From Sulfolobus islandicus Y.N.15.51 (GTDB lineage: Archaea > Thermoproteota > Thermoprotei_A > Sulfolobales > Sulfolobaceae): 64,000 bases of DNA. Positions 43,515-47,364 of the stretch are shown here, piece by piece (the first letter of the stretch is position 1; each line of letters starts with the position of its first letter). Made by a program: the position numbers and the translations under genes. The notes under the pieces were generated by a model. That model had not been told where the DNA came from. It worked only from the letters and a program-made list of their open reading frames with translations, and ran no database searches. The DNA lies in assembly GCF_000022485.1 (NCBI RefSeq), contig NC_012623.1, forward strand, positions 620,001-684,000, read 5' to 3'.

Positions 43515-44239
43515 AAAGAATAATCGTTCTTTCGCCTTTTAGGGGTCTTTTTAGGTCTATATTATACTTTTTATTAGGCCTTATTATGGCACTAATATCT
43601 GCAGGATATTTCTCCCAGCTTTTTTCGATAGTTGGAATTAATAAGGATATTGCAATAATTGTTTCAATTGCTATTTCATTTCTAAGCCTATTTAGTAGTC
43701 CTTTTAACTTAGTTTTGAAAGAGGTGAAAAAAGAGGCTATAGCAATCGAGGAAGACGTTGTATTCTTCTTTGGGTTTCCCATATTTATACCACGTATATC
43801 TAGACGCAATATGAACACATTAGTTGCAATAAATCTAGGCGGAGCCCTAATTCCAGTAGGAGTCTCGTTGTTTTTGATGTATGAATTACAAGGTTATAGT
43901 ATATATTTTATAATAAATATACTAATTGTGACTATTATTTCAAAATTTTTTTCTAGGGTAATTAGAGGAATTGGAGTTATAATGCATCCTATAATACCTA
44001 GCGTATTTTCAGTAATAACTAGTTATGTTCTTTTCTATAAATTTCATTTTCTTATACCCTTATCTGCATATATTGGCAGCATATTGGGTACGTTAATAGG
44101 TGCCGACTTACTTAACTTAAGGAGAATTATTAATGAGGCAAGACCACAAATTATAAGCATAGGTGGAATGGGTACGTTTGACGGTATATTCGTATCTGGT
44201 ATTATATCTGTTTTCATAAGCGAACTTCTTATTATCTAA
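43511..44239 (+). CDS. DUF1614 family membrane protein
   Basis: A 242-residue polytopic protein from TTG 43511. Six or seven helices are expected (LFRSILYFLLGLIMALISAG, INKDIAIIVSIAISFLSLF, TLVAINLGGALIPVGVSLFL, others). The conserved stretch ISIGGMGTFDGIFVSGIISV closes the protein, as in DUF1614 proteins of archaea. Function unknown; translationally coupled to the nucleotidyltransferase. Confidence 0.75.
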   Translation: MKRIIVLSPFRGLFRSILYFLLGLIMALISAGYFSQLFSIVGINKDIAIIVSIAISFLSLFSSPFNLVLKEVKKEAIAIEEDVVFFFGFPIFIPRISRRNMNTLVAINLGGALIPVGVSLFLMYELQGYSIYFIINILIVTIISKFFSRVIRGIGVIMHPIIPSVFSVITSYVLFYKFHFLIPLSAYIGSILGTLIGADLLNLRRIINEARPQIISIGGMGTFDGIFVSGIISVFISELLII

Positions 44240-44813
44240 AATAATTAGGGGTTCTCAAGGCTTTTGTCCCCTCGTTTCCTAGTCTGCTCAAGTAGCTTCC
44301 TCTAGCCTTAAATAAGGCATCAGCATGTGTTCAAGTTCATCACGGAAAAAATATTTGATAGGAGTGTATAAATTAATTTGAGGCGGATCTGGCAAAATCC
44401 TTGTTGGATTTAGCTTGCTTAACCTCTTTTGTCTGTGTCATATGTTTAGGTCCACCCTCGCTTATACGAACTTTTCTTCAAAAAAGTATTATTTTCCAGA
44501 CTTTTTATGTATCTTAATCATCTGGTTTTTTACGCAAAAAAGAGATCCCCATACTGACGTGTTATAAAATGTAAGTCTAGAGCGAGAGAAGTGGGATATA
44601 ATACATTTATGTATAAGAAATATGGTTCTAAGAATAATTGTTATTGCATTGCAGTTATGAATTTGTATTTTGAGGAGACCTCTAATCCTTCCACTACTGC
44701 TTAAATTCTGAATAGATAAAATAAGCATTTAGAATTCAGAGGAAGTCAGTCTCTCCGTCTTATCTTTATCAAAAGAGTAAATCATTTATAACCTTTAGAA
44801 ACTACTATATGAG
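44240..44813. other. Intergenic region with minus-strand transposase-like remnant
   Basis: About 570 bp without an intact gene. On the minus strand near 44290-44345 the frame RDELEHMLMPYLRLEEAT is interrupted by stops, and upstream of it MTQTKEVKQAKSNKDFARSASN (44390-44450) ends early, so a decayed gene, probably a transposase, is likely. The last 30 bp before the tRNA carry TTTATA (44785-44790), the tRNA-Pro TATA box. Confidence 0.4.
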
Positions 44814-44889
44814 GGGGCCGTAGTCTAGCCTGGACTAGGACGCCAGGCTTGGGCCCTGGTGATCGCGGGTTCAAATCCCGCCGGCCCCA
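44814..44889 (+). tRNA. tRNA-Pro (TGG)
   Basis: A 76-nt cloverleaf without intron: acceptor GGGGCCG/CGGCCCC with discriminator A, D arm GTCT..GGAC, anticodon stem CCAGG/CCTGG with loop CTTGGGC (anticodon TGG), T arm GCGGG/CCCGC with TTCAAAT. TATA box TTTATA lies 24-29 bp upstream. The 3' half was used as integration target: a diverged copy lies at 45924-45968. Confidence 0.97.
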
Positions 44890-45087
44890 CTCAGTTAGTA
44901 GAAAAACCACTTGATAAATTGAAAGAAGTTATCACGACTAACACCAAAAACACGCTAGTATTTCCTATATAGGGCTACTAAGGCAGTAAATAGGAGCATT
45001 AGTACCATGATGTACCCCATAGCCCTAGTCTTATGGGAGAGAAGGTTAATTCCAGAATTTGTAGCTTAATGACTACACTGTGCTTAA

Positions 45088-45164
45088 GATTCAGTAATAA
45101 AAAATTCTGAATCGGAATTAACTAATCCGACTCAATCCCGACTCAGAGATAGAATCGCTGAATC
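45088..45164. repeat. Cluster of short direct and inverted repeats
   Basis: GATTCAG (45088-45094) pairs with CTGAATC (45107-45113) around an AT-rich 12-nt loop; CTGAATC recurs at 45158-45164, and CCGACTCA occurs twice, at 45127-45134 and 45138-45145. This could be protein-binding iterons of the lost plasmid or virus. Confidence 0.5.
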
Positions 45165-45209
45165 TGGATCATCCCAAAGAGGGGTAAGAAAAATTTGGTA
45201 ATTCAAGAT

Positions 45210-45341
45210 ATGACAGCCAAACAACAACAAATTTATGACTCCCTGAAGACATTAAGTGAACATAAGACAGCAATGCCTCTGAGTAAGCTTAGCAAAGAAG
45301 AGCTAAAATTGTTACCGGAATTAAGAGAAAAGGGTATATAA
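45210..45341 (+). pseudogene. Remnant of a small element-encoded protein
   Basis: ATG frame of 43 codons (MTAKQQQIYDSLKTLSEHKT...LSKLSKEELKLLPELREKGI) then TAA. The first helix-turn-helix-like half of a winged-helix protein is visible. One frame over the next bases read NHDNRLVLAYSGRICF, a likely continuation, so a single frameshift near 45338 seems to have split the gene. Confidence 0.45.
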
Positions 45342-45356
45342 ACCACGACAATAGAC

Positions 45357-45602
45357 TTGTCTTGGCTTACAGCGGAAGGATATGTTTTAGTGCCGGTAAG
45401 GCGTGTTGAGTCCCCCAGTAAACCTAATTATATTAGTGACCCTCTTTATTATTGCCACACCATCTGGTTTGCCTCACGTTATAATGAAATAAAGGGCAAA
45501 ACCTTGAAGATGAAGATATCGACAATTGACTTAATGGCGTGCTTGAAGCTACATAATAAAAAAGAGATGGTGAACAGCGATGCTGTGTATATTAAAGAAT
45601 GA
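45357..45602 (+). pseudogene. Possible decayed element ORF
   Basis: An 81-codon TTG frame. Its second half (SDPLYYCHTIWFASRYNEIK and later KKEMVNSDAVYIKE) reads like real protein, while the first 20 codons lie in a different frame from the winged-helix remnant upstream. No ribosome site. Probably a fragment of an element gene. Confidence 0.3.
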
Positions 45603-45718
45603 AATTCAGTTTTTTGCCTAACTATGGAATCGTTATCACACCCTTTCAATTCTACTGGAGATATGATAATTAACAGTCCTTAAATACCCTCACGTGATAA
45701 TTATAAATGATTTAGAGC

Positions 45719-45982
45719 ATGGGTAATAAAACTTATACTTTTGGTGATATCCGAATAAGGGAAGTAAAAGGTAAGTATTATGTTTACATCATAGAGAAGG
45801 ATAATGAAGGTAACAGAAGGGACCATTACATAGGTCCTTTAGATAAGATCGTGGAATTTTATATTAGCAGTGGGGGTCTGGAGGGGACCCCCAATGGGGG
45901 TAGTAAGGGGACCCCCTACCGGTCAGGCTTGGTCCTGGTGATCGCGGGTTCGAATCCCACCGTCTCCATCTCATGGGTTTGA
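45719..45982 (+). CDS. SSV-type integrase N-terminal fragment, int(N)
   Basis: An 87-residue frame. Residues 4-52 (YTFGDIRIREVKGKYYVYII and then HYIGPLDKIVEFY) align by eye with the N-terminus of SSV1 integrase (YxxGDxxxRExKGxYYVYxxE, YxGPLxxVVExY). In SSV-type elements integration splits int: int(N) stays at one end beside the right att copy. Here the frame runs into two 24-bp repeats and then into a tRNA 3'-half-like sequence. The catalytic domain is absent, so this is a relic and not an active recombinase. Confidence 0.85.
   Translation: MGNKTYTFGDIRIREVKGKYYVYIIEKDNEGNRRDHYIGPLDKIVEFYISSGGLEGTPNGGSKGTPYRSGLVLVIAGSNPTVSISWV
45871..45916 (+). repeat. Two-copy 24-bp repeat with self-complementary GC core
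   Basis: TGGGGGT-5 nt-GGGGACCCCC occurs at 45871-45892 and again at 45895-45916 (period 24, eight codons, GG..GTP). Each copy can fold on itself through GGGG/CCCC. Very GC-rich in an AT-rich neighbourhood, just upstream of the att core, so possibly an integrase arm or host-factor site. Confidence 0.8.
45924..45968 (+). mobile_element. att copy: tRNA-Pro 3'-half-like sequence
   Basis: CAGGCTTGG, then the identical 18-mer CCTGGTGATCGCGGGTTC, then AATCCC-A-CCG-T-C-T-CCA match the 3' half of tRNA-Pro(TGG) 1.1 kb upstream with about five substitutions and one deletion. No 5' half precedes it, so it is an attachment-site relic and not a tRNA. Confidence 0.8.
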
Positions 45983-45986
45983 AATT

Positions 45987-46427
45987 ATGACAAGAAATAA
46001 AGCAAAATCTTTACTTATCAATTCGGTTAGAAGAGTAAAAATTTCCCTATTTTACCTTGAAAGCGGTTTCATCGATGAGGCTCGCAAAGAGATTCAAAAA
46101 TCTTGGAGGGAGGTGATATCTGCATTATTGATACTAAACTTATATAGCATAGTTGAGGATAATAAAGATAGGGAAATAATACATTATAGCGTACCCAGAT
46201 CGAAAATCTTTAGCATTTCTAAATCCTTAGAGGATAGGGGCTATAAAGATCTAGTTAAAATCTCTTCAATGTATTTCTCATCATTACAAGAATTGCCAAA
46301 AAGCGAAATAAAGGTACTTATATCAGCCTTAGCTGATGAAGAGATTATGCACATTAAGGAATGGTTTAGCGAGATATGGGATGAGAAGTTGGACGAAATG
46401 TTAAATGAGGTAAAAATAAGGCGTTAA
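45987..46427 (+). CDS. PaREP1/HEPN-like small protein
   Basis: A 146-residue all-helical protein (INSVRRVKISLFYLESGFIDEA, then KSWREVISALLILNLYSIV, then ISSMYFSSLQELPKSEIKVLI). The regular four-helix pattern with two arginine/lysine-rich helices recalls PaREP1/HEPN-type proteins of crenarchaea; the RxxxxH RNase motif is not seen. It begins just right of the att copy, so it is host DNA next to the element, possibly the neighbour whose leader was changed by integration. Confidence 0.5.
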   Translation: MTRNKAKSLLINSVRRVKISLFYLESGFIDEARKEIQKSWREVISALLILNLYSIVEDNKDREIIHYSVPRSKIFSISKSLEDRGYKDLVKISSMYFSSLQELPKSEIKVLISALADEEIMHIKEWFSEIWDEKLDEMLNEVKIRR

Positions 46428-46471
46428 ATAGAAAATCTTTAAGGTTTTAATCAAGGCTGGCTAAAGATAAC

Positions 46472-46478
46472 TTTTTAT
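46472..46478 (+). promoter_or_regulatory. TATA box of tRNA-Asn
   Basis: TTTTTAT centred 26 bp before the mature tRNA 5' end. Confidence 0.6.
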
Positions 46479-46500
46479 CCCATGAATAGTATTGTTTCTC

Positions 46501-46587
46501 GCCGGAGTAGCTCAGTTGGCAGAGCGCCCGGCTGTTATGCCGGGTGCAGAAACCGGGTGGTCGGAGGTTCGAGTCCTCCCTCCGGCG
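46501..46587 (+). tRNA. tRNA-Asn (GTT) with 14-nt intron
   Basis: Acceptor GCCGGAG/CTCCGGC with discriminator G, D stem GCTC/GAGC, T arm GGAGG/CCTCC. The anticodon stem CCCGG (46527-46531) and loop CTGTTA put GTT at 46534-46536. Without an intron the loop would have eight bases; removing 46538-46551 (TGCCGGGTGCAGAA) after position 37 restores a seven-base loop and a 73-nt mature tRNA, the canonical archaeal 37/38 intron. Confidence 0.93.
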
Positions 46588-46874
46588 CTTTATTACTTCT
46601 ATGATTATAAAATATAATACTGTTAATTATCGTAAATTCGGTTATAAGCATAATCAAAATAATATTTGATTTTATATTAAACTTTAAGTAACTATAAAAT
46701 TCATATAATGTTAAGACAAAGAATGATGGTGATAGTAATTATTCTCACGATAATGTTTAAATAATGAGAACTTGGTATATATTATATTTCTCCTTAAAGC
46801 GAAAGAGGAACACCTAGCACTTCACGATATTTATCTTATTGCTAGAAATATACTCAAGATAAAAAATTTATATG

Positions 46875-46959
<85 letters not shown>

Positions 46960-46999
46960 ACTACTTTAATAGTATGATTTATCCCTTTTTATGCTTTAT

Positions 47000-47309
47000 G
47001 GGGCCAGACCCCCTACTCCATGGCCTACCTATCTATAGGCTTGCCCCAGTTTCACTCTGACTGTTGACCAGCGAACGCTGGCGTCCGGGCACGGCTGCTC
47101 CCTTCCGGGCCTCGCCGATTCCCCCAGCTATCGTGGTACTTCCCCTCCCTCCGGAGAGGAAGCCCATGACCGCCAAGCCCCGCTGGGCAGCCTTCATAGC
47201 TCCACTGGGACCTACAGATAGGAGACACCATGGGGTAGGAGTTACTGGTGCCCGCATTACGCCTTGCGGGTCACAGGGATTGGCGATATCCCCCACCCTC
47301 CCTGGCCCC
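47000..47309 (-). ncRNA. 7S SRP RNA
   Basis: A very GC-rich stretch of about 310 nt on the minus strand. Its 5' end GGGGCCAGGGAGGGTGGGGG pairs with its 3' end (CCCCCTACTCC...TCTGGCCCC), the long SRP helix. The SRP54-binding helix 8 is plain in GGCCCGGAAGGGAGCAGCCG at about 47085-47113 (symmetric loop and GGAA tetraloop). Length and folding match archaeal SRP RNA. It scaffolds SRP19 and SRP54 for membrane protein targeting. The upstream minus-strand sequence contains CTTAAAAATC, a possible promoter. Confidence 0.95.
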
Positions 47310-47364
47310 ATCTATATATATCTTTAATGATTTTTAAGAGTATTGATAAATGCCAAGAGTTCTG

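What the first reader, a model, noticed from the sequence alone, without database searches (positions are those of the whole stretch)
44814..45982. Relic of an SSV-type integrative element at tRNA-Pro(TGG)
The order tRNA, about 1 kb, int(N), tRNA 3'-half copy, all on the same strand, is exactly that left by integrases split at attP. The int(N) N-terminus aligns with SSV1 integrase. The att copy differs from the tRNA at several bases, so integration is old or the element carried its own variant. Almost everything else has been deleted, which dates and locates a former virus or plasmid.
Basis: partly seen in the sequence, partly recalled or inferred. Interest (0 to 1): 0.58.

Follow-up and report, generated by a model that had tools for sequence, protein, structure and literature searches.

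The report
Remnant of an integrated archaeal plasmid
A one-kilobase scar beside a proline tRNA gene is what remains of a plasmid that probably once inserted itself into this heat-loving archaeon's chromosome, and it records an unusual, back-to-front version of the way such elements insert.

Summary
pXZ1 Rep had no match in 50,697 phage records, so the element was probably an integrative plasmid, not a fusellovirus. An IS apparently landed in rep and a deletion ran into int(C). The surprise is orientation. Of 130 int(N) loci examined in 31 Sulfolobaceae genomes, 127 have att antisense to int, 2 are unresolved and only the window is sense; all 28 int(C) loci examined are antisense. Among named elements 5 of 29 resolved records are sense. 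A 47-bp attP is identical but inverted between SSV13 and NL01B.C01.06, and an int(C) tree needs at least two orientation changes. attP can thus lie either way round inside these integrase genes, and the relic is an old integration of the rarer form. How attP turned round is not shown.

The parts
44814..44890 (+). tRNA-Pro(TGG), attB; its 3' half now supplied by the element (att core 44844-44889)
   Evidence: ARAGORN, Rfam, identical in the empty sites of G002, G003, G005
44891..44970 (+). 5' stub of int(C), about 27 codons, in frame with the int reading of the tRNA 3' half (...GSNPAGPTQLVEKPLDKLKEVITTNTKNTLV)
   Evidence: 44913-44954 has 34 of 42 bases identical to the int(C) start of SSV Lassen, 0 of 500 shuffles as good (recount); 23 of 24 bases to a true int(C) start elsewhere in the same genome
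44971..45085 (+). 3' end of an IS1-like insertion sequence (C-terminus of the transposase and right end); right boundary approximate
   Evidence: about 92% identical to the best of many copies in the genome; aligned copies; copy L034 codes a 244-aa transposase; InsA zinc-ribbon PF03811 in copy L016
45093..45602 (+). degraded 3' end of a pXZ1-like replication-protein gene; in-frame stops at 45108, 45123, 45150, 45159 and 45339, then the frame's last stop at 45600
   Evidence: pXZ1 Rep: E 7e-20 against this region alone, E 1.5e-17 against the whole genome; 73% DNA identity of 45093-45320 to the G002 rep gene; stops. The stretch after about 45400 has no clear similarity of its own
45719..45982 (+). 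int(N): N-terminal part of an SSV-type integrase, open through att to a stop in host DNA
   Evidence: PF07935 E 9.7e-18; 83% to pXZ1 Int over 48 aa
45863..45923 (+). integrase linker with two G-rich/C-rich hairpins, aligned nearly to att only with the sense-type elements SSVK1, SSV13, M.06.0.8v2
   Evidence: alignments reach position 201-202 of the ORF for those three of ten elements compared, at most 175 for the others
45924..45969 (+). distal att copy (3' half of tRNA-Pro), decayed
   Evidence: 5 substitutions and 1 gap against the tRNA
45987..46427 (+). host gene that followed tRNA-Pro before the integration (146 aa, function unassigned)
   Evidence: directly follows tRNA-Pro in G002, G003, G005; no Pfam family above its cut-off

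Best explanation
A circular plasmid of the pXZ1 kind, carrying a self-splitting SSV-type integrase, recombined its attP (a copy of the tRNA-Pro(TGG) 3' half lying in the middle of int) with the tRNA gene. Its attP lay in the sense direction of int. Integration therefore left int(C) attached to the restored tRNA and int(N) at the far end, the reverse of the usual arrangement in this family (shown by anatomy and tallies). With int cut in two the element could not leave by itself (from what is known of these integrases). An IS1-like element then inserted in rep, and a deletion between that IS and int(C) removed most of the plasmid (inferred from the junctions). What remains is decaying: rep has stops and the distal att has drifted. 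More widely, attP occurs in both orientations inside homologous integrase genes, so it has been turned round during evolution (shown by sequence). The mechanism of that inversion is not shown; inverted repeats flank att in some elements.
For: Empty sites in three sister species. Both ends of int in the predicted places and frame. Rep fragment, and rep-then-int(N) order as in pXZ1 and in the integrated element of G002. pXZ1 Rep without match in 50,697 phage records at E 1e-5. IS 3' end at the int(C)/rep junction. Orientation tallies: int(N) 127 anti, 1 sense, 2 unresolved of 130; int(C) 28 of 28 anti. attP inverted in otherwise colinear int genes: SSVK1 against pXZ1, 85% over 75 bp; SSV6 against SSV10, 86% over 78 bp. 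47-bp identical inverted attP, SSV13 against NL01B.C01.06. Sense needs at least two changes on the int(C) tree of 19 elements, and still does with the long SSVRH branch left out.
Against: Only the 3' end of rep remains, so the rest of the element is unknown; a plasmid-virus hybrid is possible. The G002 relative spans about 15 kb and is larger than pXZ1. The int(C) stub is short, and matches some elements only weakly. No tRNA-Pro(TGG) attP was found in viral contigs. The IS-then-deletion order is inferred. int(N), att and int(C) may have been exchanged between elements, so changes on the int(C) tree need not all be inversions.
Confidence: 0.86

Rival explanations
1. The relic is a fusellovirus (SSV) provirus rather than a plasmid.
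For: int(N) also resembles viral integrases: SSV Ragged Hills 61% over 80 aa, SSV6 77% over 52 aa; its linker resembles SSVK1.
Against: The only non-integrase cargo is rep of the pXZ1 type: pXZ1 Rep has no match in 50,697 phage records and, in 31 family genomes, one full-length relative (G002), this fragment, and one 37% match over 194 aa in G001. pXZ1 itself carries such an integrase.
Confidence: 0.1
2. The sense orientation is a local accident: an ordinary antisense element integrated and a later inversion between the tRNA and the distal att turned its inside round.
For: The window is the only sense case among the 128 resolvable of 130 int(N) loci.
Against: int(N) is continuous with a sense att, the int(C) stub is continuous in frame with the sense tRNA 3' end, and the linker matches the sense-type elements. 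An inversion would have to recreate all three.
Confidence: 0.04
3. The scar is an active minimal element moved in trans by another integrase.
For: Two att copies bracket about 1.03 kb; the review notes excision of split elements by related integrases (PMC8371274, passages seen).
Confidence: 0.03

Closest known systems
Plasmid pXZ1 of Sulfolobus islandicus (NC_010365.1)
   Same: Rep C-terminus (E 7e-20), int(N) 83% over 48 aa, int follows rep across the record origin
   Different: pXZ1 attP is a tRNA-Glu copy lying antisense in int; the relic's is tRNA-Pro(TGG) and sense
SSVK1, SSV13 and M.06.0.8v2.SSV
   Same: sense attP and the same two-hairpin linker before it
   Different: viruses, other tRNA target, no pXZ1-type rep found in phage records
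SSV5 and SSV6
   Same: sense attP; int(N) 77-81% to SSV6
   Different: viruses; target is a tRNA-Gln; different linker
Integrated element of G002 at tRNA-Thr(GGT) (L042, L227)
   Same: rep followed by int(N), 73% and 69% DNA identity
   Different: antisense att, about 15 kb, int(C) present
'intN fragment' remnants at tRNA genes of S. islandicus LAL14/1, REY15A, HVE10/4 (PMC3718332, passages seen)
   Same: lone int(N) relics at tRNA genes
   Different: intN fragments are listed there at tRNA-Glu, -Ala and -Pro(GGG); at Pro-TGG only REY15A has an insertion (transposase and hypothetical proteins); orientation not discussed in the passages seen

Membership tests
Relic of an SSV-type (type I, suicidal) integrase element | int(N) ending in an att copy | tested here: met
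   PF07935; att at 45924-45969
Relic of an SSV-type (type I, suicidal) integrase element | int(C) continuing from the other att | tested here: met
   stub of about 27 codons only; 34 of 42 bases to SSV Lassen, 0 of 500 shuffles as good; weaker or not significant for others, e.g. SSV Ragged Hills 44 of 500
Relic of an SSV-type (type I, suicidal) integrase element | catalytic domain PF16795 present | tested here: not met
   none of the six matches of the genome lies at this locus; taken as lost with the deletion, which is what 'relic' means here
Relic of an SSV-type (type I, suicidal) integrase element | att direct repeat restoring a tRNA gene, single in empty sites | tested here: met
pXZ1-like integrative plasmid | pXZ1-type Rep | tested here: met
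   C-terminal fragment only
pXZ1-like integrative plasmid | rep directly upstream of int | tested here: met
pXZ1-like integrative plasmid | remaining plasmid genes (DNA-binding protein, small ORFs) | not tested
   no room for them in the 1.1-kb scar, but the pXZ1 small genes were not compared one by one
Fuselloviridae | fusellovirus structural genes | tested here: not met
   PHROGs scan of four ORFs of the region: int(N) hits an integrase and an unnamed family; the others at best E 0.017, unknown function
pRN-type plasmids | pRN1-type primase-polymerase Rep, CopG and PlrA (recalled) | not tested
   pXZ1 Rep shows only a weak RepB_primase match; no pRN plasmid was compared

The most novel reading that the evidence does not exclude
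The attP module of SSV-type integrases is an invertible cassette: a G/C hairpin plus a tRNA 3' half that has flipped repeatedly inside int, probably through the inverted repeats that still flank it in elements such as SSV10. The flip decides which half of the broken integrase stays on the host tRNA. The sense form may be purged from chromosomes because it puts the catalytic half behind a tRNA promoter.
Probability: 0.22. Interest if true: 0.72.

Novelty: new variant of a known kind. Interest (0 to 1): 0.5.

Why it matters
Lone int(N) relics are familiar in Sulfolobales. The tally suggests a plain reason: in the common orientation int(N) is joined to an essential tRNA gene while int(C) is at the far end and free to be lost (199 int(N) matches in 31 genomes, against 32 int(C) matches above 50 bits). 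The window shows the other orientation, probably in a plasmid. That attP can lie either way round inside a protein-coding gene, both readings open, bears on how suicidal integrases change and persist, a question for which the 2021 review offers a model but no settled answer (PMC8371274, passages seen), and it can be tested directly.

Tried and rejected
Selection for orphan int(N): I first suspected that the excess of int(N) over int(C) meant a function for int(N). The orientation result explains it more simply. Caveat: PF16795 covers only the catalytic part, so decayed int(C) pieces can be missed. dN/dS of the window int(N) is low (dS about 1.0, dN about 0.11 against pXZ1), but most of that divergence may predate integration, so no claim is made.

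Simple inversion between the flanking repeats does not give the sense structures exactly: SSVK1 carries both hairpins on one side of att. Inverted repeats across att beat all 300 single-base shuffles in only 3 of 19 elements (SSV10, SSV Lassen, IMG17696); SSeV (0.007), SSV7 (0.027) and SSV1 (0.040) are marginal; the other 13, the three sense ones included, are not significant.

Contrast of named elements with chromosomes: 4 of 21 against 1 of 128 sense, Fisher p 0.0014; 5 of 29 against 1 of 128, p 0.0008. Records are not independent (near-copies; one genome per species), and several named records come from integrated copies. M.06.0.8v2, a sense one, is chromosomally integrated (PMC6452263, passages seen), so sense elements do integrate; the p-values are only a guide.

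Dropped rows. int(N): 2 of the 52 genus matches (weak ones at G001:C1:153589 and G003:C1:342427) and 68 of the 148 matches in other genera were not examined; 2 of the 130 examined had no att by my rule (L128; L175, which has an antisense tRNA-Pro some 300 bases on). int(C): of 32 matches above 50 bits, which are 30 genes, 28 were examined; L047 was seen by the int(N) route (antisense) and G016:C1:1101897 was not examined; in L211 the att is only 14 bases; 6 of the 28 also have an unrelated sense tRNA gene further upstream. Elements: SMF1 and SSV15 stayed unresolved. A first int(C) tree lost 6 of 19 rows to my motif filter and was redone with 19; that tree warned of the long SSVRH branch, so it was built again without it, with the same result. 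Only 3 of the 5 sense elements are in these trees.

The search for a tRNA-Pro(TGG) attP in viral contigs found nothing. No structure was predicted.

Full report
What is there. The window lies at 620001-684000 of contig C1 of a 2.85-Mb genome in a genus of seven held species, family of 31 genomes. tRNA-Pro(TGG) is at 44814-44890. ORF 45719-45982 is int(N) (PF07935, E 9.7e-18). A copy of the tRNA 3' half begins at 45924 and differs from the tRNA by 5 substitutions and 1 gap in 46 columns.

The insertion is proven by empty sites. In G003 the window stretches 44001-44246, 44700-44891, 45924-46589 and 46862-47360 align in order to one locus, and the two att copies fall on the same 48 bases. G002 and G005 also have tRNA-Pro directly followed by the relative of the 146-aa ORF 45987-46427. 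Of the other three species, G001 has an antisense int(N) at the same tRNA, G006 has a different near flank before a relative of the same gene, and G004 has the tRNA in another context. The differences in the distal att are most simply decay: its right part was the host tRNA 3' end, which is unchanged in the three empty sites.

Inside the insert. (a) After the tRNA, 44891-44970 continues the int reading frame. Window 44913-44954 matches the int(C) start of SSV Lassen at 34 of 42 bases with 0 of 500 shuffles as good, and 23 of 24 bases of a true int(C) start at 217 kb in the same genome. IMG17696 also beats all 500 shuffles; SSV6 (1), SSV5 (2), pXZ1 (2) and SSVK1 (4 of 500) are weaker, and SSV Ragged Hills (44 of 500) is not significant. 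(b) 44971 to about 45085 is the 3' end of an IS1-like element, about 92% identical to the best of many copies in the genome; copy L034 encodes a 244-aa transposase and copy L016 has the InsA zinc ribbon PF03811. (c) 45093-45602 is the end of a replication-protein gene: pXZ1 Rep matches at E 7e-20 against the region and 1.5e-17 against the genome, the G002 rep gene at 73% DNA identity; five in-frame stops precede the frame's end. (d) int(N) follows, as it does in G002 and in pXZ1 across the record origin.

What the element was. pXZ1 Rep has no match in 50,697 phage records at E 1e-5. In 31 family genomes it matches a full-length gene in G002, this fragment, and one stretch in G001 at 37% over 194 aa. 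pXZ1 is a 6,970-bp plasmid with an SSV-type integrase. The relic is therefore most likely a pXZ1-like integrative plasmid. Its int(N) is closest to pXZ1 (83% over 48 aa), with SSV Ragged Hills and SSV6 near, but its linker aligns nearly to att only with SSVK1, SSV13 and M.06.0.8v2 among ten elements compared. Rep is weakly RepB-primase-like (PF16793, E 1.5e-4, below the curated cut-off; PHROG DNA polymerase/primase) and had no match among solved structures.

Orientation. I examined 130 int(N) loci: 50 of the 52 genus matches, the window included, and 80 of the 148 other matches. In 116 a complete tRNA lies antisense at or within 130 bases of the end of int(N); in 11 an antisense partial att; in 2 none by this rule; only the window is sense. 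All 28 int(C) loci examined have an antisense att upstream, in one (L211) reduced to 14 bases. Thus in the usual form int(N) stays on the tRNA, which can explain why int(N) relics are so much commoner than int(C): 199 matches in 31 genomes against 32 above 50 bits.

Named elements. Of 23 element loci, 21 could be resolved: 4 sense (SSV5, SSV6, SSVK1, M.06.0.8v2) and 17 antisense. Eight further records gave 1 sense (SSV13) and 7 antisense. SSVK1 and pXZ1 int genes are colinear on both sides of an att that is inverted (85% over 75 bp); SSV6 and SSV10 likewise (86% over 78 bp). SSV13 and NL01B.C01.06 share a 47-bp attP, identical but inverted; M.06.0.8v2 ends in the same att letters as SSV13. The paper on these viruses lists tRNA-Asp(GTC) as site for M.06.0.8v2 and for NL01B.C01.06 (PMC6452263, passages seen), so one tRNA gene is entered in both orientations. 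On an int(C) tree of 19 elements (3 of them sense) the sense label needs at least two changes, also without the long SSVRH branch. One inversion with a later switch of tRNA or an exchange of modules could lower that number, so 'at least one inversion' is certain and 'two or more' likely. Inverted repeats flank att strongly in 3 of 19 elements, but a simple flip does not reproduce the sense linkers exactly, so the mechanism is open.

Literature. Lone intN fragments at tRNA genes are reported for S. islandicus (PMC3718332, passages). The review of archaeal tyrosine recombinases (PMC8371274; abstract passages, other passages and section 18 read) describes suicidal integrases, pXZ1 and a model of chimeric integrases through chromosomal inversion, but in what I read there was nothing on attP orientation within int. 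For SSV9/SSVK1 infection I saw passages of PMC7372142, which do not treat attP. Searches made for this; they cover open-licence PMC papers only and I read few of the papers listed, so the older primary papers on SSVK1, SSV5/6 and pXZ1 (not read) may say it.

Mechanism, steps shown and inferred. Shown: site, empty sites, both int ends, rep fragment, IS end, orientation. Inferred: integration by the element's own Int; IS insertion in rep; deletion between IS and int(C); decay. The att decay (6 of 46 columns) speaks for an old event but gives no date.

Noticed in passing
window 44250-44700: Upstream of tRNA-Pro the window has roughly 360 bp more than G003, and 44500-44565 matches many dispersed copies in the genus: another mobile-element remnant.
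   Followed up: partly
window 46501-46588: ARAGORN's undetermined tRNA with a four-base anticodon reads as an intron-containing tRNA-Tyr(GTA) when introns are allowed.
   Followed up: partly
window 47001-47308 (-): Archaeal SRP RNA (Rfam RF01857, 191 bits) explains the local G+C rise to about 0.5.
   Followed up: yes
L047 (G000:C1:176855-177833): int(N), a tRNA-Thr(GGT) antisense att and int(C) lie next to one another in the chromosome without a full tRNA: an unsplit integrase gene, its frame interrupted soon after int(N).
   Followed up: no
L042 and L227 (G002:C2, about 635-650 kb): About 15-kb element at tRNA-Thr(GGT) with pXZ1-type rep, int(N), int(C) and a 1373-aa glycine/serine-rich ORF: possibly a plasmid-virus hybrid.
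   Followed up: partly
L039 (G001:C1:3007545-3007782): The same tRNA-Pro(TGG) gene was hit in G001 by an antisense-type element.
   Followed up: yes
L050 (pXZ1) 156-233 and L053 (SSV6) 1359-1434: attP plus the G/C hairpin is called as a complete tRNA by ARAGORN; the hairpin seems to stand where a D arm would.
   Followed up: no
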